Source: Nakamurella deserti (lineage in GTDB: Bacteria > Actinomycetota > Actinomycetes > Mycobacteriales > Nakamurellaceae). From it: a stretch of 64,000 nucleotides of DNA. The first letter of the stretch is position 1, and every line of letters begins with the position of its first letter. A program made the translations under genes and the position numbers. Under the pieces are notes generated by a model. It made no database searches and was not told the DNA's origin. It saw nothing but the letters and a program-made list of their open reading frames with translations. Shown piece after piece: positions 29,224-38,417 of the stretch. Where the stretch lies: assembly GCF_003260015.1 (NCBI RefSeq), contig NZ_QCXS01000002.1:1612001-1676000 (forward strand), read 5' to 3'.

Positions 29224-30050
29224 CCCCCCGCATCACGCTGCTCACCGGCGCCGACATGCCCGTCCCCGACGACGAGACCGTGCACCTGGTCGCGGCTCTG
29301 GACCGCGCCGGGGTGCAGGCCCGGATCGCCGTCTGGTCCGACGAGGAGGCGATCACCGACCCCGGTGATCTCGTCGTCGTCCGCACCACCTGGGACTACA
29401 CGTTCATGCCCGACCGGTTCCTCGCGACACTGCCGCGCTGGGGGGCGACGCTGCAGAACCCGTTCCCGGTCATCGAGCGGAACGTCCGCAAGCGGTACCT
29501 GCTCGCCCTCGCCGACGCCGGAGTGCCGGTGGTGCCCACCCGGCTGCTCACCGCCGGCGAGACCCTCGGCGCGGCAACGGGTCGCATCGTGCTCAAGCCC
29601 GAGATCGCTGCCGGCGCGGACGGGATCGGACTCTTCGACGCCGACGATCCCGCGGCGGCAGCGCATCTGCAGGACCTCCATCGGCGCGGTGACGTGCTGC
29701 TGCAGCCGTACCTGGAATCGGTGCAGGACGGCGAGCGGTCGCTGGTGTACCTGGGCGGGGAGTACTCGCACGCGGTCCGCAAGGTGCCGGCGGACGGCGA
29801 CTTCCGGGTGCAGCTCGAGCACGGCGGCACCACGATCCCGTACGTCCCCACACCCGCGGAGCGGCGGCTCGCCGAGGCGGCCCTGGCCGAGGTCGGGCAC
29901 GACCTGCTGTACGCCCGGGTCGATCTCGTGGCCACGCCGGACGGTCCGCTGCTGATGGAGCTGGAACTGATCGAGCCCGACCTGTTCCTCGGTCACGCCG
30001 ACGGCGCCTTCGACCGTTTCGCCGCGGTTCTCGCCGCGGCCGCACGGTGA
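29220..30050 (+). CDS. ATP-grasp domain protein (RimK/glutathione synthetase-like)
   Basis: A 276-residue ATP-grasp ligase-like protein, GTG overlapping the DUF1003 stop. It shows VVVRTTWDYTFMPDRF and WGATLQNPFPVIERNVRKRY in the N-terminal domain, the ATP-binding lysine in GRIVLKPEIAAGADGI, and the metal-site acidic residues in LLMELELIEPDLFL. Such 'RTTWDY' proteins are widespread and uncharacterised. The substrate is unknown. Coupling to a glycerate kinase gene downstream (GTGA overlap) suggests co-regulation rather than an obvious pathway. Confidence 0.85.
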   Translation: MTPRITLLTGADMPVPDDETVHLVAALDRAGVQARIAVWSDEEAITDPGDLVVVRTTWDYTFMPDRFLATLPRWGATLQNPFPVIERNVRKRYLLALADAGVPVVPTRLLTAGETLGAATGRIVLKPEIAAGADGIGLFDADDPAAAAHLQDLHRRGDVLLQPYLESVQDGERSLVYLGGEYSHAVRKVPADGDFRVQLEHGGTTIPYVPTPAERRLAEAALAEVGHDLLYARVDLVATPDGPLLMELELIEPDLFLGHADGAFDRFAAVLAAAAR

Positions 30051-31054
30051 CGCGGGTCCTGGCCGCCCCGGACAAGTTCCGGGGTACGGCGACCGCACCC
30101 GAAGCGGCGGCCGCGATCGCGGCCGGGGTCGGGGACGCGGGCGGCAGCTGTGTGCGGCACCCGTTGGCCGACGGCGGCGAGGGCACCGTCGACGCCTTCG
30201 GCGGCGCCAACCGGTGGTCGGAGGTCGCCGGCCCGGCCGGCCGGCCGGTGCGGGCCGGCTGGCGGCTCACCGACGAGGGCGACGCCGTCCTGGAGATGGC
30301 GGCGGCCTCGGGCCTGGTGGCGGCGGGCGGCGCCGACCGCAACGACCCGTGGGATGCCACCACCGCCGGCACCGGCGAGCTGATCCTGGCGGCGACCGCG
30401 GCGGGTGCACGGCGCATCATCGTCGGTCTCGGTGGCTCCGCGACCACCGACGGCGGCTGGGATGCCCTGGAGGTGCTGCGGCAGCACCCCCGCTGGCAGG
30501 ACCCGGCGAGCCGCCCCGAGCTCGTCGTGTGCTGCGACGTCACCACCGCCTTCGTCGACGCGGCCGCGGTCTTCGGTCCACAGAAGGGCGCCGACCCCGA
30601 CACCGTGTCCCGCCTGGCCGACCGGCTGCGAGCCCTGCAGGACCGCTACCGGGACGAGTTCGGCGTCGACGTCTCGGCGTTGCCCGGCGCCGGCGCGGCG
30701 GGCGGCCTGGCCGGCGGGCTCGCCGTCCTGGGCGCCCGGCTGGCCCCCGGTTTCGACCTCGTCGCCGACGTCACCGGCTTCGACACCGCCCTCAGCGAGG
30801 CCGATCTGGTGATCACCGGCGAGGGTCATCTGGACGCGGGGTCCTACGACGGCAAGGTCGTCGGTGGGGTGCTGCACCGGGCCCGCGGCCGCGGCGTGCC
30901 GGTGGTGGCGGTGGTCGGGCGGCAGACCCGCTCCGATCGGGACGACGAGGACCTGACGGTTCTGGAGCTGGTGTCCTTCGTCGGCGCCGACGCCGCGATC
31001 GGGGACACCACGGCGTCGATCCGCCGGGTGGTCGCGGAGTACCTGGCCGGCTGA
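30047..31054 (+). CDS. Glycerate kinase (GlxK/GarK family)
   Basis: A 335-residue type-II glycerate kinase making 2- or 3-phosphoglycerate. Family motifs: VLAAPDKFRGTATAPEAAAA at the N-terminus, RHPLADGGEGTVDAF, AAASGLVAAG with TTAGTGELI, the glycine loop IIVGLGGSATTDGG, LVVCCDVTTAF, FGPQKGAD, and LVITGEGHLDAGSYDGKV. All are intact. It ends one base before the convergent stop of the ECF transporter S component. Confidence 0.92.
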   Translation: MTRVLAAPDKFRGTATAPEAAAAIAAGVGDAGGSCVRHPLADGGEGTVDAFGGANRWSEVAGPAGRPVRAGWRLTDEGDAVLEMAAASGLVAAGGADRNDPWDATTAGTGELILAATAAGARRIIVGLGGSATTDGGWDALEVLRQHPRWQDPASRPELVVCCDVTTAFVDAAAVFGPQKGADPDTVSRLADRLRALQDRYRDEFGVDVSALPGAGAAGGLAGGLAVLGARLAPGFDLVADVTGFDTALSEADLVITGEGHLDAGSYDGKVVGGVLHRARGRGVPVVAVVGRQTRSDRDDEDLTVLELVSFVGADAAIGDTTASIRRVVAEYLAG

Positions 31055-31855
31055 TCAGCGGCTCGGGGCGTCGAACCGGGCGCGCCTCGCGGCCCGGCGC
31101 AACACGGTCAGCACCGCCGGTCCCAGCACGGAGATCGCGACGACGTTCGTCAGGGCGCGGCCGGTGTCCCACCCGGCCGTGGAGGTGATGAGGGTGTAGA
31201 CCACGAAGCGGTGCAGGTTCTCCCCCGGCGACGCCCCCGGAAGGTAGGCCAGACCCGGGGTGTCGAAGCCGGCGCTGACCGCGAACGGCCACGACGAGAG
31301 GTTCATCAGCAGGCCGAACGCGTACGCCGCCAGCACGCCGTACAGGGCCAGCATCACGATCTCGGCGACGCCGCGGACCCGTCGCGGCAGCAGCCCGGCG
31401 CCCATCCCGACCCACGCCGCCGCCAGCATCTGGAACGGCAGCCACGGCCCCACCCCGGCGGTCAGCAGGGCCGAGGCGAACAGCGAGGTGATGCCGAGCA
31501 TGAACCCGAACCCGGGTCCGAAGACCCGGCCGGACAGGATGAGCAGGAAGAACACCAGCTCGATGCCGGCGGTGCCGGCACCCAGCGGCCGCAGGGCGGC
31601 GTTCACCGCGGACAGCACACCCAGCATCGCCAGCGTGGTGGCGCTGAGCCCCCCGTCGGACAACTGGGCCACCACCAGCAGCACCAGCACCGGCAGCAGC
31701 GCCACCACGACGAACGGCGCCTGGGCGTCCTGCACGGCGGTCGGCGCGTTCCCGATCAGCAGCGGCCAGCCGAACAGCAACAACCCGGCGACGGTGGCCG
31801 CGGTCAGCACCACCGCCGAGCGCACCCCCAGCGGCCAGGCACGGATCCCGCTCAT
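31055..31855 (-). CDS. ECF transporter S component (substrate-binding, predicted cobalamin)
   Basis: A 266-residue membrane protein with six hydrophobic helices (first at about 14-32, VVLTAATVAGLLLFGWPLL). It binds the vitamin in an ECF importer. Sequence hallmarks of S components are weak, but FVVVALLPVLVLLVVAQLSD, LGVLSAVNAALRPL, LSGRVFGPGFGFMLGITSLF and LPFQMLAAAWVGMGAGLLPR match the actinobacterial group called CbrT in subsystem annotations. Its ATG overlaps the ATPase stop (ATGA). It is the last gene of a five-gene run headed by a cobalamin riboswitch, which is the main reason for predicting B12 as substrate. Confidence 0.8.
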   Translation of the reverse strand: MSGIRAWPLGVRSAVVLTAATVAGLLLFGWPLLIGNAPTAVQDAQAPFVVVALLPVLVLLVVAQLSDGGLSATTLAMLGVLSAVNAALRPLGAGTAGIELVFFLLILSGRVFGPGFGFMLGITSLFASALLTAGVGPWLPFQMLAAAWVGMGAGLLPRRVRGVAEIVMLALYGVLAAYAFGLLMNLSSWPFAVSAGFDTPGLAYLPGASPGENLHRFVVYTLITSTAGWDTGRALTNVVAISVLGPAVLTVLRRAARRARFDAPSR

Positions 31856-33435
31856 GACAACGCCTTTCTGACCTGCTCGACGGTCAGCCACGGTTCCGGG
31901 TGCAGGACCCGGGCCACCTGCGGCGCGAACGCCGGGGAGGCGGCGATGACGTCCGCGGTGGGTCCGTCGGCGACGATCTCACCGGCCGCCAGCACCATCA
32001 CGCGGTCGGCGTAGCGGGCCACGAACTCGACGTCGTGGGTGGCGACCAGCAGGGTGGTGCCGGCGTCGGCGAGTTCGGCCAGGACGTCGACCAGCGCCGC
32101 CTTGGCGCGGTAGTCCAGCCCGCGGGTCGGCTCGTCGAGGAGCACCAGGGCCGGCGCGGCGGTGAGCTGGACGGCCAGCGCCAACGCCAGCCGCTGACCC
32201 TCCGAGAGGTCGCGCGGGTGGGTGCTGTCGGCGATCCCCGGGGCGAGCCGGTCCAGCAGGGTGCGACAGGTCCCGTCGGGGACCTGCTGTTGACGCTCGG
32301 CGGTCCGGCACTCGGCGCCGACGCTGTCCAGGTAGAGCAGGTCGGCGGCCGTCTGCGGCACCAGTACCACCTGGGCGTCCCGGTCGACCGGGACGCCCCG
32401 TACCGTCACCCGTCCCGCCGTGCGGCGGCCGACACCGGTGAGGGACCAGAGCAGGCTGGATTTCCCGGACCCGTTGCGCCCCATCAGGGCCACCCGCTCC
32501 CCCGTCCGCAACGTCAGCGTCAGGTCGTGGACGGCGGTGCGCTCCCCGTAGCGGACGGTGAGACCGGCCGCGGTCAGCAGGGTCGCGCCGACGGACGCGG
32601 TGCGCTGCGGCGGACGGCGACCGGCCAGCCGGTCCCGCAGCGGCGTCGCGCGGCGCCGGGCGTCCCGGATGGACAGGGGAAGCGGCGACCAGCCGGTCAA
32701 CCGGCCGAGTTCGACCAGCGGTGGCGCCACCGGAGCGTCGACCATCAGACGGGCCGGGTCACCCGCCGCGATCGTGCCGTCCCCGGCCACCAGCACCAGC
32801 CGGTCGGCGTACTGCAGCACCCGCTCCAGCCGGTGTTCGGCCATCACGACGGTGACCCCGAGGTCGTGGACGAGGCGCACCACCGCCGCGACGACCTCCT
32901 CGGCGCTGGTCGGGTCCAGCGCGCTGGTCGGCTCGTCCAGCACGAGCACCCGGGGGCCGGCGGCGAGCACCGCGGCGATGGCCACCCGCTGCTGCTGGCC
33001 GCCGGAGAGCGTCCGGAGCGCACGGTCGCGCAGATCGGCGATACCGAGCAGGTCCAGCGTCTCCTCGACGCGGGTGCGCATCGTCGACGGCGGCAGCCCG
33101 AGCTGCTCCATGCCGTAGGCGAGCTCCTCCTCGACCACGTCGGTCACGAAGCCCGCGAGCGGGTCCTGCCCGACGACCCCGACGCTGGCGGCGAAGTCGC
33201 GTGGCGGGTGGTCGGCGGTGCGCAGGCCGGCCACGGTGACCGTCCCGGTGAGGACGCCGCCGGAGAAGTGCGGCACCAGGCCGTTGAGCAGCCCGAGCAG
33301 CGACGACTTGCCGGAGCCGGTCGGGCCCGCGACGACGACCAGCTCCCCCTCGGGGATGTCGAGGTCGACCCGGTGCAGGACCGCGGGGCCGTCGTCGGTG
33401 TACCGCAGGGTGACGTCGTCCAGCCGGATCACCAT
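31852..33435 (-). CDS. ECF transporter ATPase with two fused ATP-binding domains (A-A')
   Basis: A 527-residue double ABC ATPase that powers the ECF importer. Domain 1: Walker A GPTGSGKSS (37-45), Q-loop VGQDP, signature LSGGQQQRVAIAA (143-), Walker B VLVLDEPTSALD. Domain 2: Walker A GRNGSGKSS (319-327), signature LSEGQRLALALA (410-), Walker B ALVLLDEPTRGLD. The second signature has Glu instead of the usual Gly, and its Q-loop reads VPQTA. Both switch histidines are seen (MAEHRLE, ATHDVE). It overlaps the T-component gene by 7 bases and the S-component gene by 4. Confidence 0.93.
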   Translation of the reverse strand: MVIRLDDVTLRYTDDGPAVLHRVDLDIPEGELVVVAGPTGSGKSSLLGLLNGLVPHFSGGVLTGTVTVAGLRTADHPPRDFAASVGVVGQDPLAGFVTDVVEEELAYGMEQLGLPPSTMRTRVEETLDLLGIADLRDRALRTLSGGQQQRVAIAAVLAAGPRVLVLDEPTSALDPTSAEEVVAAVVRLVHDLGVTVVMAEHRLERVLQYADRLVLVAGDGTIAAGDPARLMVDAPVAPPLVELGRLTGWSPLPLSIRDARRRATPLRDRLAGRRPPQRTASVGATLLTAAGLTVRYGERTAVHDLTLTLRTGERVALMGRNGSGKSSLLWSLTGVGRRTAGRVTVRGVPVDRDAQVVLVPQTAADLLYLDSVGAECRTAERQQQVPDGTCRTLLDRLAPGIADSTHPRDLSEGQRLALALAVQLTAAPALVLLDEPTRGLDYRAKAALVDVLAELADAGTTLLVATHDVEFVARYADRVMVLAAGEIVADGPTADVIAASPAFAPQVARVLHPEPWLTVEQVRKALS

Positions 33436-34493
33436 CGGAACGCCCCCGCCGGCAACGCCGGGATCACTGCGACCAGCAGTCCGAGCGCGGCCGTCACCGG
33501 CAGGGCCGGCCACATCAGCGGGTTCGCGCTCGGGTACAGCTGCGCGGGGGATGCGGCGAACACCGCGGCGGCGGCCACCGCGCCAGTGCCGGCCACCAGC
33601 CACTCCCGTCCGCGCCACGGGTCGGGACGGTACCGGGAACGGTGCACCCGGGCGCCGGCCAGCCGGAACCCCAGCGCGCCGACGACGACCCCCGCGATCG
33701 CCACCGGGGTGCCCAGCCACCAGGGGCTCTGGGCGTCGAGCAACCCGTAGGCCCCGATCGCCACGCCGCCGACGCCGGCCAGCAGGCAGGCCGACGTGAG
33801 CCGGCGGCGCTCCGATCCGGCCGGTGACCGGCCGTAGCCCCGGGAATCCATCGACGCGGCGAGCAGCAGCGACCGGTCGAGCGCGTCGGTGAGCACCGGG
33901 ACGACCACCGTCCGCAGCCGGTGACGCCGGGTCCGTGGACCGCGCCGCAACGCCTGGGCGCGGCGGACCCGGCCGACCGCCTCGACCAGCTGCGGGAACA
34001 CCGACACGCTCACCACCAGCACGGTGCCCACCTCGTACAACGCCGACGGCATCGCGGCCAGCAGCCGTTTCGGATTGGCCAGCGCGGCGGCCGCGCCGAC
34101 ACAGACGATCATCGTGGCCAACCGCAGTCCGTCGTAGAAGCCGGCGAGCAGTGCCTCCGCCGACACCTCGCCGAGCAGGCTGACGCCGGCCGCGGCCTCG
34201 GGCAGTGCGATCTCCGGGAGGGTGAACAGCACGGTGGGTCCGGCGCCGGCCGTGAGCATCCGGAAGGTGACGCGCAGCACGACCACGAGCGCGGCGACCG
34301 CCAGGTACCAGCGGAACCCGACCGCCCACGGGGCGGCGGTGCGGCGGGCGGCGACCACCAGTCCGGCGATCGCGATGATGAGGCCCAGCAGCAACGGGTT
34401 GGTGGTGTGGCTGGCCGCGGCGGCCAGCGTCAGCGACCACAGCCACCAGGCGCCCGGATGGGTCGCCCGGCGTCGTGTCCAACTGTCCGCCAT
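33429..34493 (-). CDS. ECF transporter T component (CbiQ-like)
   Basis: A 354-residue transmembrane energizing subunit joining the ATPases to the S component. There are N-terminal helices to about residue 160, then the cytosolic coupling region VGRVRRAQALRRG and DRSLLLAASMDSRGYGR, whose S-R-G corresponds to the A-R-G coupling motif of T components. It is longer than typical EcfT (about 265) because of four extra C-terminal helices (about 245-350). The start ATG at 34493 is 6 bases after the stop of the surface-protein gene. Confidence 0.9.
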   Translation of the reverse strand: MADSWTRRRATHPGAWWLWSLTLAAAASHTTNPLLLGLIIAIAGLVVAARRTAAPWAVGFRWYLAVAALVVVLRVTFRMLTAGAGPTVLFTLPEIALPEAAAGVSLLGEVSAEALLAGFYDGLRLATMIVCVGAAAALANPKRLLAAMPSALYEVGTVLVVSVSVFPQLVEAVGRVRRAQALRRGPRTRRHRLRTVVVPVLTDALDRSLLLAASMDSRGYGRSPAGSERRRLTSACLLAGVGGVAIGAYGLLDAQSPWWLGTPVAIAGVVVGALGFRLAGARVHRSRYRPDPWRGREWLVAGTGAVAAAAVFAASPAQLYPSANPLMWPALPVTAALGLLVAVIPALPAGAFRW

Positions 34494-34499
34494 CGAGGG

Positions 34500-35624
34500 T
34501 CAGTCGTCGTCGCGGGTGGCCCGGCGCCGGTGGATCAGCACGGTGCCGACGACGAGCACGGCGATGAGCACGGCGCCGGCGAGCGCGACCAGCGCGGCGT
34601 CACCGGAGTCGTCGGGGGTGAGATCCGCAGCATCAGCGGCGTTGTCGAGGGTGGTGGCTCCGGCGTTCGGCGTCCCCGTGGCCGTTCCGGTGGACGACGG
34701 ATCCGTGGCGGCCGACGTCGACGACGCTGATCCTTCACCGGGAGGCGAGGTCCCGGCGACCGGCGGGGTGGACGACTCCGTGGGTGGGGTGGCGGCGGGG
34801 TCGACCGCCGTGGTGCCGGGCGCCGGGTCCACCGTGCCCGGCGCCGGGTCGGCGGTGCCCGGCTCCGGGTCGGCGCTGTCGGGGGGCGGGGTGCGCGAGG
34901 TGGTGGCCGGTGACGTCGTGCTCCGTGACGGAGTCGTCGGGGCGGGGGCCGGAGCAGGTGCGGGCGCGGGGGCCGGGGCAGGTGCCGGAGCGGGGGCCGG
35001 AGCAGGTGCCGGTGCGGGGGCGGGGGCGGGTTCCGGATCGGGCTGTGGTGCGGGCGCCTGGACCTCGGGTGGCACCTCGACGGCCGCGGCGGCGACCGGG
35101 GCGTAGCCGGGCGGCGAACCGCTACCCCGCCCGAAGACCCACCCTTCGAAGCCGCCGGGCTGCACCCGGCTGGAGGTGAGTCCGTTGCTGCTGTAGGTCC
35201 AGTTCCCGTCGCCGCTGGACTGCCAGTACGCCCAGGAGGCGTCGGCGGGCGGGGTGTCGACGCAGGACTCGGTGTAGTCCGCGTCCTTGGTGGTGCCGAC
35301 GCTCTCGGCGATGGTCGGACGGCCGTTGAGCCGGCAGAGGAACCCCGGCTGGGTCGTCGGTGGCGACCACGAGAAGCCCGCGGCTTCCAGGGCCCTGCTC
35401 CCCCGGGATGCCGAAGTCAGTCCAGTGGCGCAGCCGACCTGGATGCCGCCGCCGAGGCGGCCGTAGTCGACGACGACGGTGACACCGTCGGCACTGGTGC
35501 AGCCGCTCCCGCGAGCGGCGGTGGCCGTGCCCGGCGCGAACGTCCCGAGCAGCACGCAGAGGACCCCGACGAGGGCGGCGACCCGGCCGGGTCGCCGCCC
35601 GGTGGCTGCGGTGCGGATCGGCAT
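34500..35624 (-). CDS. Secreted membrane-anchored DUF4430-like protein with (Ala-Pro)15 stalk
   Basis: A 374-residue cell-surface protein. The signal peptide is at 1-36 (AALVGVLCVLLGTFAPGTATA). The DUF4430-like beta domain (about 41-165) has cysteines 42, 65, 97 and 121 and the core GVTVVVDYGRLGGGIQVGCA. An exact (Ala-Pro)15 stalk spans 200-229, then a Thr/Ser/Pro-rich linker. One C-terminal helix (about 342-365) with the basic stop IHRRRATRDDD keeps it in the membrane. DUF4430 corresponds to the beta domain of animal intrinsic factor/transcobalamin. A B12-capture role is inferred from this and from the riboswitch-led operon. Confidence 0.75.
   Translation of the reverse strand: MPIRTAATGRRPGRVAALVGVLCVLLGTFAPGTATAARGSGCTSADGVTVVVDYGRLGGGIQVGCATGLTSASRGSRALEAAGFSWSPPTTQPGFLCRLNGRPTIAESVGTTKDADYTESCVDTPPADASWAYWQSSGDGNWTYSSNGLTSSRVQPGGFEGWVFGRGSGSPPGYAPVAAAAVEVPPEVQAPAPQPDPEPAPAPAPAPAPAPAPAPAPAPAPAPAPAPAPTTPSRSTTSPATTSRTPPPDSADPEPGTADPAPGTVDPAPGTTAVDPAATPPTESSTPPVAGTSPPGEGSASSTSAATDPSSTGTATGTPNAGATTLDNAADAADLTPDDSGDAALVALAGAVLIAVLVVGTVLIHRRRATRDDD
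34938..35027. repeat. (Ala-Pro)15 coding repeat
   Basis: Ninety bases coding for fifteen Ala-Pro pairs (residues 200-229 of the surface protein). Codons vary between units (GCC/GCA/GCT/GCG with CCC/CCG/CCT), so the peptide is being conserved rather than the DNA. It probably forms a stiff rod that lifts the domain off the membrane. Confidence 0.85.
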
Positions 35625-37456
35625 CAGTGCCGGCGGGGTGCCCGGGTCCGGCGGCCCGCGACGACGAGGCCGGCGCCGGCGACGAGCAGGAGTGCGGCGA
35701 TCCCGAGCTCGGTACCGGTCCGGTCGGTGACGCCGGTGGACGCCAGCGCCGGAGCGGTGGTCTTGACCGGGGTGCGGGTAGTCGACGGGGTCGTGCTCGT
35801 GGTCACCGGAGCCGCCGCGGAGGCGGTCGTCGGCTGCGCGGAGGTGGTCGGGGCCACGGGCTCGGTGGTCGGGGCCACGGGCTCGGTGGTCGGAACCACG
35901 GGCTCGCTCGTCGGGTCGGTGGGCTCGGTGACCGGGGCCTCACAGGTGGCGGCGGCGGGCAGCGCGTCCTCGGCGCCGGCGGCGGTCAGGTCGGCCAGTG
36001 CGGGAGTGCCCAGGCCGAGCACGGCCTGCACGGAGGCGTACTGCCACTCGCCCAGGTTGCCCTCGTCGAGGCCGAACTCGGCGGCGTCGGCCAGGCCGGC
36101 CGGGGTCCAGGCGATGGCGCCGACCTCGGCCGGGGTCAGCGCGGTGTCGACGAGGGTGTCGCAGGTGACCTGCAGCCCGCCGATGAAGCCCGCGGCGGCG
36201 GTGGCGGCGTCGGCAGCCCCCACGGCGGCGAAGGCGTTGCCGCCCAGACCGGTCGAGTTCGTGTTGCCACCGAGATCACCGGCGGTGCCCTGCTGCGCGC
36301 TCAGCCAGGCGGTGGCCGTCGCGACGGTCGCGTCGTCGCCGGTCAGGCCGCCGGCCAGCAGGCCCTCGACGGCCAGGGCGGTGTAGTCGGGGTCGGCGGA
36401 GGTGCACGGATCGGCGTCGTAACCGAAACCGCCCGCGTTCGCCCCCTCGGCGCACTGCTGGGCGGCCAGCCAGCTCAGCGCGGTGGCCGGAGCACCCGCT
36501 TCGGTGCGACTCAGCGCGATGAGCGCGTAGGCGTGCCGGAACGGGTCGTCGGCGGTGCCGAACGAGCCGTCGGCGTTGAGGGTGGAGCGGAGTTCGCCGA
36601 GGAGGTCGCGGGTGCCGCCGGCACCGTCCGGGAAGGCCGCGGTGTCCACGCCGGCGATCTGCAGGGCCAGCGCGAACTTGGCGATCTGCGCGAACTTCGC
36701 GGGCGCCTCGGCTGCTGTCCCGACGTAGGCCGACCCGGACGCGAGCAGCGCGGCGGCGGAGCGGTCGATGGTGTCGCCACCGACACCGGCCGCGGCCAGC
36801 GCGTAGACCGCGTCCACGGTCAATCCGGGCGAGCCGTTGATCAGGCCGTCGCCGGCCTCCAATTGACGGCCGATCCAGCCGGCGACCGCGGTGGCGCTGC
36901 CCTGGGCGGGGCCGTAGGCGGGCACCTCGACCGGGGTGTTGTCGCGAGCCGGCAGCGCGGTCAGGTCGAGGCGGGGCGGCGCGCTGGTCGTGCCATCACT
37001 GAGGCTGTAACCGATCGTGCTACCCACACCCACCGGTCCGCCGCTCAGCCCGACCTGGGCGAACGCCCACTCGTCGGTCGGCGCTCCAGCCGGCTGACCC
37101 TCTGCGTTGGACAGCCACGACGACCAGTAGGGCCCGGGGAACGCGAAACAGTCGTCGGCATTGGCTGCGACCCCGTCGATGGCGCACAGGTAGGGTCCGC
37201 TGAAGTCCTGCGTGGTGACCTCGAAGCCGGCCGCCTCCATCGCATCTCCGAGGGACTCCTGCGGACCCGCCGCGCAGCCGACGACGAGCTCGTCCTCGGC
37301 GGGCGCGAAGTCCACGACGACGGTGACGCCCTCGTTGACGCCGCAGGCGGTGCCGGTGACGGTCGGTGCGGCGGAGGCGGACTGCACCAGCATCAGCGAG
37401 CTCAGTCCGGCGGTGGCGGTGACGAGGGTGACGGCAGCGAGCCGGCGGATCGACAT
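35624..37456 (-). CDS. Secreted intrinsic-factor-like protein: DUF4430-like domain plus alpha/alpha toroid, LPXTG-like tail
   Basis: A 610-residue surface protein. Signal peptide 1-29. DUF4430-like domain ~36-155 (cysteines 38, 61, 91, 103; GVTVVVDFAPAEDELVVGCA). Alpha/alpha-toroid (prenyltransferase/squalene-oxidase-repeat-like) ~185-495 with recurring helix starts FRHAYALIALSRT, DPDYTALAVEGLLAG and STGLGGNAFAAVGA, the last resembling the S-T-G-L-A-x-Q-A-L repeat of cobalamin-binding intrinsic factor. Pro/Thr linker 506-565, then LASTG (571-575), helix and basic tail, like a variant sortase signal. First gene behind the cobalamin riboswitch. Its stop overlaps the next start (TGATG). Confidence 0.8.
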   Translation of the reverse strand: MSIRRLAAVTLVTATAGLSSLMLVQSASAAPTVTGTACGVNEGVTVVVDFAPAEDELVVGCAAGPQESLGDAMEAAGFEVTTQDFSGPYLCAIDGVAANADDCFAFPGPYWSSWLSNAEGQPAGAPTDEWAFAQVGLSGGPVGVGSTIGYSLSDGTTSAPPRLDLTALPARDNTPVEVPAYGPAQGSATAVAGWIGRQLEAGDGLINGSPGLTVDAVYALAAAGVGGDTIDRSAAALLASGSAYVGTAAEAPAKFAQIAKFALALQIAGVDTAAFPDGAGGTRDLLGELRSTLNADGSFGTADDPFRHAYALIALSRTEAGAPATALSWLAAQQCAEGANAGGFGYDADPCTSADPDYTALAVEGLLAGGLTGDDATVATATAWLSAQQGTAGDLGGNTNSTGLGGNAFAAVGAADAATAAAGFIGGLQVTCDTLVDTALTPAEVGAIAWTPAGLADAAEFGLDEGNLGEWQYASVQAVLGLGTPALADLTAAGAEDALPAAATCEAPVTEPTDPTSEPVVPTTEPVAPTTEPVAPTTSAQPTTASAAAPVTTSTTPSTTRTPVKTTAPALASTGVTDRTGTELGIAALLLVAGAGLVVAGRRTRAPRRH

Positions 37457-38011
37457 ACGGGCCTTTCGGGCGCGGGCGGAGCGCCGGCAGGCTCGAAGTA
37501 GGGCGTCCGACGGAGCGCAGCATGCATCGCACCGGGACGACGGGACCCGAGCTCCGCCCTGCAATCCGCGACAGGGATGGAGCGTCACTCACATCCGGGA
37601 AGGCGATCCGACTCACGGCCCTGGGGCCGACCACGGTTGCGCGACAGTGCCGGAATCCGACCGGCTTCCCCTGCCCGGGGTGGAACAACGCCGCTGAGCG
37701 TATCCCACGCTCACAGCCGATTCCGACCCTGCCCACATCCGCCCCCCACGAGCGTGCCGTGCCCGAGTTGGTACCGGCGCGTCGGTCGTCGTGGACCGGG
37801 ATCGGGACCGTCCTGGTTCGGCGGTCCGCGTATCCAGGCCGTCAGCGTGCCCACCGCGCTGCGCGGTGTCTCGCCGCACCCGGTGGCGACGCGCCGGGGA
37901 TGCCGCGAACGTCGCCGTGCAGCGGCGTGGCTCCTCCACCCGCCGCGGTGAGGGCGGCACCGTGGTCCGGTCGCCGGTAGCCCGGCGGCCGACCGAGCCC
38001 GGGAAACACAA
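37457..38011. other. Intergenic region holding the riboswitch
   Basis: The leader from the surface-protein start to about 37712 is the cobalamin riboswitch and its expression platform. From 37713 to 38011, before the ssrA terminator, I see no gene, hairpin or repeat. The operon promoter is expected here, but no clear -35/-10 pair stands out. Confidence 0.5.
37585..37712 (-). promoter_or_regulatory. Cobalamin (B12) riboswitch
   Basis: On the complement the aptamer core reads GGGAAGCCGGTCGGATTCCGG (about 37650-37670), CACTGTCGCGCAACCGTGG (the B12-box region, 37631-37649) and GAGTCGGATCGCC (37602-37614), in the order and spacing of the cobalamin riboswitch consensus (GGGAA, GGTG-like, CTGTCCCGCAACTGT, GAGTC). 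It ends about 130 bases before the start of the intrinsic-factor-like gene, leaving room for an expression platform that should shut the operon off when adenosylcobalamin is bound. The outer limits given are approximate. Confidence 0.9.
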
Positions 38012-38037: not shown

Positions 38038-38047
38038 CTCTGCGCTG

Positions 38048-38417
38048 TGGAGGTGGCGGGAATCGAACCCGCGTCCAACGTTGCTTTCTGAGGGCTTCTA
38101 CGTGCGTAGTCCACTAAGCCTCTACTCGACCCCATCGATCACGTGAACATGCCGATGTGACGGGCCCAGTCACTGTTTGATGTCCCATTCACCCGCGTGA
38201 CCCGGCTGAACGGTGATCCCCCTAGTCGACGCCAGGATCCGGGCTGGGGGCAGGCCCGGTCTGACGGAGTCGCTACTCGCTCAGGCGGCGAGGGCGAACT
38301 CGCGCTGACTGTTGTCGGCGCTTGATTTTTTTGCGACGGGTGGTTAACGAGCTCATCGTCGCCTTCCTCGGCACGCTTCACCTCAGTCGACATCCGCTGT
38401 CGAAACCAATCACCCCC
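38048..38417 (-). ncRNA. ssrA: Transfer-messenger RNA (tmRNA)
   Basis: A 370-nt RNA on the complement. The 5' end GGGGGTGATTGGTTTCGACA pairs with the 3' end CACCTCC (G3:U alanine identity pair), and GGACGCGGGTTCGATTCCCGCC forms the T-arm. The tag frame (38281-38334) begins at resume codon GCA and encodes AKKSSADNSQREFALAA, ending in TGA. The ALAA end is the protease signal. CCA is not encoded. Its protein partner smpB lies 4.8 kb away on the same strand, with ftsX and ftsE beyond it, as in other actinobacteria. Confidence 0.97.

What the first reader, a model, noticed from the sequence alone, without database searches (positions are those of the whole stretch)
31055..37712. Riboswitch-led operon joining intrinsic-factor-like surface proteins to an ECF importer: a predicted bacterial B12 capture system
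Seen: a cobalamin riboswitch precedes five minus-strand genes with overlaps or 6-base spacing: a toroid plus DUF4430-like surface protein, a DUF4430-like stalk protein, and ECF T, A-A' and S subunits. Known: animal intrinsic factor and transcobalamin bind B12 between an alpha/alpha toroid and a beta domain; B12 riboswitches shut off B12 import or synthesis genes; a B12-type ECF transporter (CbrT) is known. Inference: the two surface proteins grip B12 outside the membrane and hand it to the S component, replacing the BtuF/BtuC type of import.
Basis: partly seen in the sequence, partly recalled or inferred. Interest (0 to 1): 0.88.

Follow-up and report, generated by a model that had tools for sequence, protein, structure and literature searches.

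The report
Bacterial vitamin B12 capture-and-import operon
A bacterium carries a B12-sensing RNA switch in front of genes for two surface proteins that resemble the animal B12 carriers and for an energy-driven membrane importer; such a system had been foreseen in print for other bacteria, but here it proves to be widespread among actinomycetes, with an unexpected reshuffled form of the carrier domain in some of them.

Summary
A cobalamin riboswitch leads five tightly packed minus-strand genes: below Rfam's cut-off (42 of 50 bits), but found by a model built without the window at 72.5 bits, E 1.3e-15. The genes encode an SLBB (transcobalamin beta-domain-like) plus toroid wall protein, an SLBB stalk protein, and ECF T, A-A' and S subunits. 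Of 68 testable homologous loci 66 have the riboswitch, 65 an SLBB and 51 a toroid upstream of T. CbiC and CobS were not found in the host genome, which has methylmalonyl-CoA mutase, a MetH-like B12 domain and a riboswitch-led metE. Best reading: capture and import of complete B12. The idea is in print: Burroughs 2007 (toroid/SLBB proteins with CbiO/CbiQ) and Kang 2017 (riboswitch-led ECF modules in acI). Added here: their union in actinomycetes, SLBB as near-constant partner of S, and a circularly permuted SLBB in 10 of 20 hand-picked further loci and 9 of 9 small-genome loci (none in the 80 nearest), which follows the S-component tree.

The parts
37548..37697 (-). Cobalamin (AdoCbl-type) riboswitch leading the operon
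   Evidence: RF01482 42 bits, below cut-off 50; held-out model R1 72.5 bits, E 1.3e-15; family covariation 98.0% of cells paired, 11 of 16 pairs with double changes, 0 of 500 shuffles as high
35624..37456 (-). P1, 610 aa: signal peptide, SLBB domain, alpha/alpha toroid, Thr/Pro linker, LASTG-type sorting signal with TM and basic tail
   Evidence: ORF (start codon chosen by me); SCO2321_fam 37.7 bits, below cut-off 300; family alignments A5, A6; tail. Signal peptide read by eye.
36947..37366 (-). P1 SLBB (transcobalamin beta-domain-like) domain, residues 31-170
   Evidence: Row of alignment A5; A5 against DUF4430 by hhalign E 2.7e-4, 0 of 150 column shuffles as high
35957..36928 (-). P1 alpha/alpha-toroid domain, residues 177-500
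   Evidence: Row of alignment A6; family members hit SQHop_cyclase_C, Prenyltrans, Cobalamin_bind; family profile finds squalene-hopene cyclase structures, E 2.1e-31
35732..35746 (-). LASTG, predicted sortase (LAxTG/LPxTG-type) motif of P1
   Evidence: 0 of 3340 other open frames of 200 aa or more in the 80 loci have such a tail. That LAxTG is a sortase motif is recalled.
34500..35624 (-). P2, 374 aa: signal peptide, SLBB domain, Pro/Ala/Thr stalk, C-terminal TM anchor
   Evidence: ORF; TM tail; SLBB family A5; SCO2322_fam only 13.8 bits, cut-off 85
35085..35516 (-). P2 SLBB domain, residues 37-180
   Evidence: First row of A5
33429..34493 (-). ECF T subunit (CbiQ-like)
   Evidence: PF02361 E 1.9e-7, 31.4 bits over cut-off 25
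31852..33435 (-). ECF A-A', two fused ABC ATPase domains
   Evidence: PF00005, two stretches, E 1.2e-49; ECF_ATPase families at E 2.9e-82 and 2.1e-81 but below their cut-offs; TIGR01166 cbiO 217.7 bits over cut-off 211.8
31055..31855 (-). ECF S component, substrate-binding membrane subunit
   Evidence: ECF-ribofla_trS 24.4 bits of 26.7; ECF_S_folT_fam 23.3 of 60; homologues in 211 of 394 genomes of the class

Best explanation
The operon is a B12 (cobamide) scavenging importer. When B12 is scarce the leader riboswitch lets the genes be expressed; when coenzyme B12 is plentiful it shuts them off. P1, anchored in the cell wall, and P2, anchored in the membrane by a stalk, display transcobalamin-like SLBB domains and a toroid that pick up B12 outside the membrane. 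P2, the more constant partner, passes it to the S component, and the T/A-A' module drives import with ATP. Shown: the genes, their order, the riboswitch homology and covariation, conservation of the set, and the host's B12-user gene content. Inferred: corrinoid binding, hand-over, transport direction, wall anchoring and off-switching.
For: Riboswitch. 66 of 68 testable homologous loci have it upstream of T, 57 of 59 when loci used to train the model are left out; 65 of 68 have SLBB and 51 of 68 a toroid upstream. Of the 89 best riboswitch matches the next domain downstream is a toroid or SLBB in 86 (85 within 450 nt, one 1589 nt away) and T in 3; median 190 nt. Some stand-alone toroid/SLBB units near the operon have riboswitches of their own. 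Loci never used in training: 19 of 20 at E below 1e-4 and 9 of 9. The toroid family touches Cobalamin_bind. A true DUF4430 protein lies in the same cluster in one relative (36.4 bits, cut-off 23.8). Host: no CbiC match, no CobS match, mutase, MetH-like domain, riboswitch-led metE; without CobS, cobinamide or lower-ligand salvage would not obviously serve. Over 394 genomes S is commoner where CbiC is absent (135 S only, 76 both, 126 CbiC only, 57 neither, not corrected for kinship). The SLBB form follows the S tree.
Against: The SLBB-DUF4430 similarity is remote: hhalign probability 42%, 1 of 86 Pfam-level hits at E 0.097; exchanging the halves of the permuted SLBB did not raise its score against DUF4430 (31.9 both ways). 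The S component shows no similarity to a solved ECF S chain, so its ligand rests on context. 76 S-bearing genomes also carry CbiC, so the system is not confined to non-makers. Two loci (L051, L053) lack the riboswitch and three (L026, L029, L079) lack an SLBB upstream of T. The toroid family is nearest by sequence to squalene cyclases. The leader does not fold better than shuffles.
Confidence: 0.78

Rival explanations
1. The importer carries a B12 precursor or part (cobinamide, alpha-ribazole or dimethylbenzimidazole, cobalt), not complete B12.
For: B12 riboswitches also control cobalt and precursor transporters (PMC3766115, passages); cbrUVT and cblTS are listed for cobyrinate diamide and DMB uptake in a review (PMC8123684, passages). 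76 S-bearing genomes have CbiC and could finish a precursor.
Against: CbiC and CobS were not found in the window's genome, so precursors or cobalt would be of little use there; a toroid plus SLBB suits a large corrinoid. Other salvage enzymes (CobU, CbiB, CobT) were not searched.
Confidence: 0.13
2. The surface proteins are B12 stores, sensors or scaffolds of the wall, and the ECF part alone imports.
For: The toroid is often absent or in a separate unit; toroid/SLBB units occur away from the transporter genes.
Against: An SLBB lies 5' of T in 65 of 68 loci, 20 of 20 further loci and 9 of 9 small-genome loci, and its form follows the S-component tree with 2 changes against 17.9 in shuffles, which points to a working pair.
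Confidence: 0.12
3. The ligand is not a corrinoid: the riboswitch merely switches an alternative route that is needed when B12 is low.
For: Cobalamin riboswitches also control isozymes of B12-dependent enzymes (PMC3766115, passages), as before the metE-like gene of this very genome; the S component is nearest to folate/riboflavin-type S families, below cut-off.
Against: [quoted passage not shown]
Confidence: 0.06

Closest known systems
Transcobalamin-clade SLBB/toroid operons with CbiO/CbiQ predicted by Burroughs et al. 2007 (PMC1796856; passages and section 7 part 1 of 2)
   Same: Secreted SLBB fused to an alpha/alpha toroid (either order in bacteria), a second SLBB paralogue, CbiO-like ATPase and CbiQ-like membrane protein in the operon; proposed to scavenge B12 or precursors.
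   Different: The parts read name low-GC Gram-positives, planctomycetes and, less often, euryarchaea for the clade; a riboswitch, an S component and a permuted form are not mentioned in them (a Gram-positive anchor motif is).
Putative cobalamin ECF modules led by cobalamin/AdoCbl riboswitches in acI freshwater actinobacteria (Kang et al. 2017, PMC5301498; passages)
   Same: Actinobacterial ECF module behind a B12 riboswitch in genomes without B12 synthesis.
   Different: No surface proteins are mentioned in the passages read.
ECF-CbrT of Lactobacillus delbrueckii (PMC5997447; passages)
   Same: ECF importer for B12.
   Different: The S-component profile finds no ECF S chain among solved structures. 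CbrT works with a shared ECF module (group II; recalled), whereas here T and A-A' are encoded with S.
Animal intrinsic factor / transcobalamin
   Same: Toroid plus beta-domain; the toroid family touches Pfam Cobalamin_bind (14 of 76 members at E up to 1, best 2.2e-4).
   Different: Order reversed in P1 (SLBB then toroid); domains on separate proteins in most relatives; a second SLBB on P2; predicted to be surface-anchored.
NCBIfam SCO2321_fam and SCO2322_fam (Streptomyces gene names)
   Same: 73 of 76 toroids match SCO2321_fam and 61 of 86 SLBB domains match SCO2322_fam at E up to 0.01.
   Different: Window proteins are far below both cut-offs; the one protein tested that passes SCO2322_fam (L179, 153.3 of 85 bits) is of the circularly permuted form, and colinear SLBB domains match only the profile's first third.

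Membership tests
Cobalamin riboswitch (Rfam CL00101) | Score above an Rfam gathering cut-off | tested here: not met
   42 of 50 bits, RF01482
Cobalamin riboswitch (Rfam CL00101) | Match to a model of cobalamin riboswitches of relatives, window held out | tested here: met
   72.5 bits, E 1.3e-15; 8 of the 13 model rows pass an Rfam cut-off, 5 score just below it
Cobalamin riboswitch (Rfam CL00101) | Binds a corrinoid and switches expression | not testable with these tools
   needs in-line probing or a reporter
Burroughs SLBB/toroid B12-scavenging operon | Secreted toroid plus SLBB protein | tested here: met
   toroid by family profiles; SLBB only by remote profile comparison; secretion read by eye
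Burroughs SLBB/toroid B12-scavenging operon | Second extracellular SLBB paralogue in the operon | tested here: met
   P2, alignment A5
Burroughs SLBB/toroid B12-scavenging operon | CbiO-like ATPase and CbiQ-like T in the operon | tested here: met
Burroughs SLBB/toroid B12-scavenging operon | Host lacks key B12 synthesis enzymes | tested here: met
   no CbiC, no CobS match in a genome given as 99.55% complete; only these two enzymes were searched
Pfam DUF4430 (PF14478) | Score above Pfam cut-off | tested here: not met
   0 families for P1 and P2; 0 matches in the whole own genome
Pfam DUF4430 (PF14478) | Homology by profile-profile comparison | tested here: met
   E 2.7e-4, 0 of 150 column shuffles as high; probability only 42%
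Group I ECF transporter | S, T and ATPases encoded together in one operon | tested here: met
   S is below its family cut-offs
CbrT S component | Sequence similarity to solved ECF-CbrT | tested here: not met
   no ECF S chain among solved structures at E up to 10; a fold comparison was not possible
Animal intrinsic factor/transcobalamin | Toroid N-terminal, beta-domain C-terminal in one chain | tested here: not met
   P1 order is SLBB then toroid
Animal intrinsic factor/transcobalamin | B12 sandwiched between the two domains | not testable with these tools
   structure prediction switched off; no binding data
SCO2321_fam / SCO2322_fam | Score above NCBIfam cut-off | tested here: not met
   37.7 of 300 and 13.8 of 85 bits

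The most novel reading that the evidence does not exclude
More than half of the actinomycete genomes sampled carry this S component, with an SLBB (transcobalamin beta-domain-like) surface protein as its standing partner: a B12 capture device on an ECF importer. In several lineages, among them what look like Streptomyces and small freshwater-type genomes, that domain is circularly permuted, and the permutation has been inherited together with the S component, perhaps from one event by way of tandem SLBB domains such as some relatives still have. B12 carriers of the animal kind would then be one outcome of an old bacterial capture domain that tolerates permutation, splitting and reordering.
Probability: 0.55. 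Interest if true: 0.75.

Novelty: new variant of a known kind. Interest (0 to 1): 0.6.

Why it matters
How Gram-positive B12 users take up B12 is only partly known; [quoted passage not shown] This operon names candidate proteins in over half of the genomes sampled from its class (S component in 211 of 394). If P1/P2 bind B12, an ECF importer would have an extracellular binding protein in addition to S, which is itself described as the substrate-binding protein (PMC5997447, passages), and the ancestry of the human B12 carriers could be tested on bacterial proteins. The permuted form gives a direct test of which parts of the fold matter.

Tried and rejected
Direct Pfam and NCBIfam scans of the window proteins gave no toroid or DUF4430 hit over cut-off; only family alignments and profile comparison did. 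Solved-structure search with the SLBB profile gave two weak antibody hits taken as chance, and with the S profile nothing of use. A first DUF4430 comparison used wrong strands for minus-strand loci and was repeated correctly. Mapping of RF00174 hits to loci by contig numbers was unsure (the hit mapped to L034 did not look like a riboswitch); the hits used to train R1 were looked at by eye, and the loci were then searched with R1 themselves. Lone-strand folding of the leader was uninformative; no promoter-like sites were found. SbmA/BacA (PF05992) as another B12 route: no match. Papers were searched for SCO2321-SCO2324, DUF4430, CbrTUV, transcobalamin-like, SLBB, Streptomyces B12 transport and circular permutation: no description of the actinomycete toroid/SLBB plus ECF operon or of a permuted SLBB was seen in the listings or passages read; most subscription papers are not held, and Rodionov's 2009 ECF paper (recalled) was not read. 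For no paper was the whole text read: passages only, plus section 7 part 1 of PMC1796856.

Rows left out and limits: one search used the 89 best of 99 matches (E up to 9.2e-5) and 68 of 80 loci; 12 were dropped (no T: L033, L035, L041, L087; less than 4.5 kb upstream of T: L040, L044, L045, L049, L059, L062, L070, L090). Alignment A5 has 2 window rows and 84 of 100 SLBB hits; A6 has 1 window row and 75 of 93 toroid hits, near-copies left out by hand. The DUF4430 alignment has 29 of 30 loci (L145 gave no readable stretch). The 80 loci are the best of 548 confirmed, from a capped list, so they lean towards close relatives. The 20 loci L188-L207 were picked by hand over families from the list. 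Of the ten small genomes nine loci were fetched; G369, with a stop inside its match, was not. One search scored 150 of 341 first-look candidates. The cross-table takes the 394 genomes to be the same draw, as their handles suggest; one S match in it is weak (G048, E 4.5e-4).
Full report
CHECK OF THE OBSERVATION. The five minus-strand genes are there as described: P1 37456-35624, P2 35624-34500, T 34493-33429, A-A' 33435-31852, S 31855-31055, with overlaps or a 6-base gap. The riboswitch is real by homology but atypical for Rfam: the gathering scan misses it and AdoCbl reaches 42 of 50 bits. I built a covariance model from 13 riboswitches of related loci, leaving the window out; 8 of them pass an Rfam cut-off and 5 score below it (24.8-31.1 bits). 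It finds the window element at 37697-37582 with 72.5 bits, E 1.3e-15, the next best place having 16.5 bits. On 99 matches in relatives the modelled helices are 98.0% paired, 11 of 16 pairs show changes on both sides, and no shuffle of 500 comes near; the alignment was fitted to the model's structure, which leans the count that way, but slid versions fall to 62% paired or less. Folding the window leader alone gives no signal (z 0.70).

THE PROTEINS. T is a CbiQ-type subunit and A-A' a fused pair of ABC ATPases. S resembles ECF S components below cut-off. P1 has, after a signal peptide read by eye, an SLBB domain, a toroid, a Thr/Pro linker and a LASTG-TM-basic tail; P2 has an SLBB domain, a Pro/Ala-rich stalk and a C-terminal TM segment. 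In the 80 loci, sorting-type tails were found in 9 of 79 toroid ORFs, 1 of 6 ORFs with both domains and 1 of 96 SLBB ORFs, against 0 of 3340 other open frames of 200 aa or more (many of them not genes); 69 of 96 SLBB ORFs end in a TM segment. So most toroid proteins have no such wall signal. The toroid family is secure: 56 of 76 members hit SQHop_cyclase_C, 41 Prenyltrans, 14 Cobalamin_bind at E up to 1, and its profile finds squalene-hopene cyclase at E 2.1e-31. The SLBB domain is a remote relative of DUF4430: only 1 of 86 members hits it, at E 0.097, but the profile comparison gives E 2.7e-4 over 74 columns, score 29.7 against at most 19.1 in 150 column shuffles and 12.3 for the reversed profile, with a probability of only 42%. 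In one relative (L158) a protein over the DUF4430 cut-off (36.4 of 23.8 bits) lies in the same cluster, after SLBB, T, A-A', S and a toroid gene.

CONSERVATION. Anchoring on the S component, which knows nothing of surface proteins or RNA, 80 loci were fetched from named genomes (capped at the best 80). Of the 68 with T and at least 4.5 kb upstream, 66 have the riboswitch on the same strand upstream of T (57 of 59 without loci used in training), 65 an SLBB and 51 a toroid there; by my count of the listing, 57 of 68 have a toroid somewhere in the locus. Of the 89 best riboswitch matches, the next domain downstream is a toroid or SLBB in 86 and T in 3, median distance 190 nt; one of the 86 lies 1589 nt away, the rest within 450 nt. 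Some toroid or SLBB units near the operon have riboswitches of their own, for example in L052, L064, L078 and L094. Nine of ten small genomes (1.3-2.2 Mb, one family) were looked at: all nine have riboswitch, SLBB, T, A-A' and S but no detected toroid within 14 kb. Over the class, 211 of 394 genomes have the S component.

THE HOST. In the window's genome (given as 99.55% complete) no CbiC and no CobS was found, but there are two methylmalonyl-CoA mutase stretches and a B12-binding domain in a 1184-codon frame that I take for MetH. The one RF00174 riboswitch found in it lies before a gene whose translation I read as MetE. So it seems to use B12, to save on MetE when B12 is there, and not to make it. 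In 394 genomes S and CbiC tend to exclude each other (76 both, 135 S only, 126 CbiC only, 57 neither; odds ratio 0.25, p 7e-11, not corrected for kinship), but 76 genomes have both. Two FecCD pairs could be siderophore or BtuC-type permeases; this was not settled. In the genus, by a search with P1 alone, 3 of 17 genomes have a match over most of the protein, the window's included, so the system looks patchy there.

A CIRCULAR PERMUTATION. In the small-genome loci the SLBB protein matches the window-type profile in two pieces in reversed order, 9 of 9; the one tested (L179) passes SCO2322_fam (153.3 of 85 bits). The same holds in 10 of the 20 further loci, the other 10 being colinear; among 103 SLBB ORFs of the 80 nearest loci none is permuted. 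The second piece is weak in single proteins (E 0.001 to 0.96), but profile comparison of the 19 permuted domains with A5 gives both pieces, E 4.7e-12 and 9.3e-8, in swapped order, and exchanging the halves gives one colinear alignment of 113 columns, E 1.7e-18. The exchange does not raise the score against DUF4430 (31.9 both ways). On a tree of 106 S components the permuted state needs 2 changes against 17.9 in shuffles; one origin is not excluded (several long branches, bootstrap not fully settled). G414 and G127 have one system of each kind. Some relatives have tandem SLBB domains (L018, L019), the kind of intermediate from which a permutation can arise (inference). The window itself has the colinear form.

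MECHANISM AND PRIOR WORK. The best reading is stated above: riboswitch-controlled capture of complete B12 by surface-anchored SLBB/toroid proteins and import through a dedicated ECF transporter. Burroughs et al. 2007 (PMC1796856; passages and section 7 part 1) already inferred that toroid-SLBB surface proteins, often with a second SLBB paralogue and with CbiO/CbiQ genes, scavenge B12 or precursors, and that animals gained theirs by transfer from bacteria. Kang et al. 2017 (PMC5301498; passages) proposed riboswitch-led ECF modules as B12 transporters in acI actinobacteria. What this study adds is the joining of the two in actinomycetes, a quantified link to the riboswitch, the near-constant SLBB-S partnership, and the permuted form. 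Corrinoid binding, hand-over and any replacement of BtuFCD remain inference.

Noticed in passing
L179-L187; L188-L192, L194, L195, L202, L203, L206: The SLBB protein beside the ECF genes is a circular permutant of the window-type domain (SCO2322_fam type in the one tested); the state follows the S-component tree.
   Followed up: yes
window 38045-38417 (-): A tmRNA gene lies upstream of the riboswitch-led operon on the same strand (Rfam 157.7 bits).
   Followed up: no
window 31054/31055: A glycerate kinase gene (30047-31054, plus strand; PF02595) ends base to base against the end of the S gene.
   Followed up: no
L017 4778-5017 (-) (own genome, C2:984777-985016): The one RF00174 riboswitch found in the genome precedes a gene that reads as MetE.
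   Followed up: partly
L012 8185-12727: Two toroid/SLBB gene pairs in one locus, each with an R1 riboswitch before it.
   Followed up: partly
L158 8370-9134: A protein over the DUF4430 cut-off sits in the same cluster, after S and a toroid gene.
   Followed up: yes
L051, L053 (Amycolatopsis): SLBB-T-A-S loci without a detected riboswitch and without a detected toroid.
   Followed up: no
genus of the window (G001-G016): By a search with P1, only G004 and G014 of 16 congeners have a match over most of the protein.
   Followed up: no
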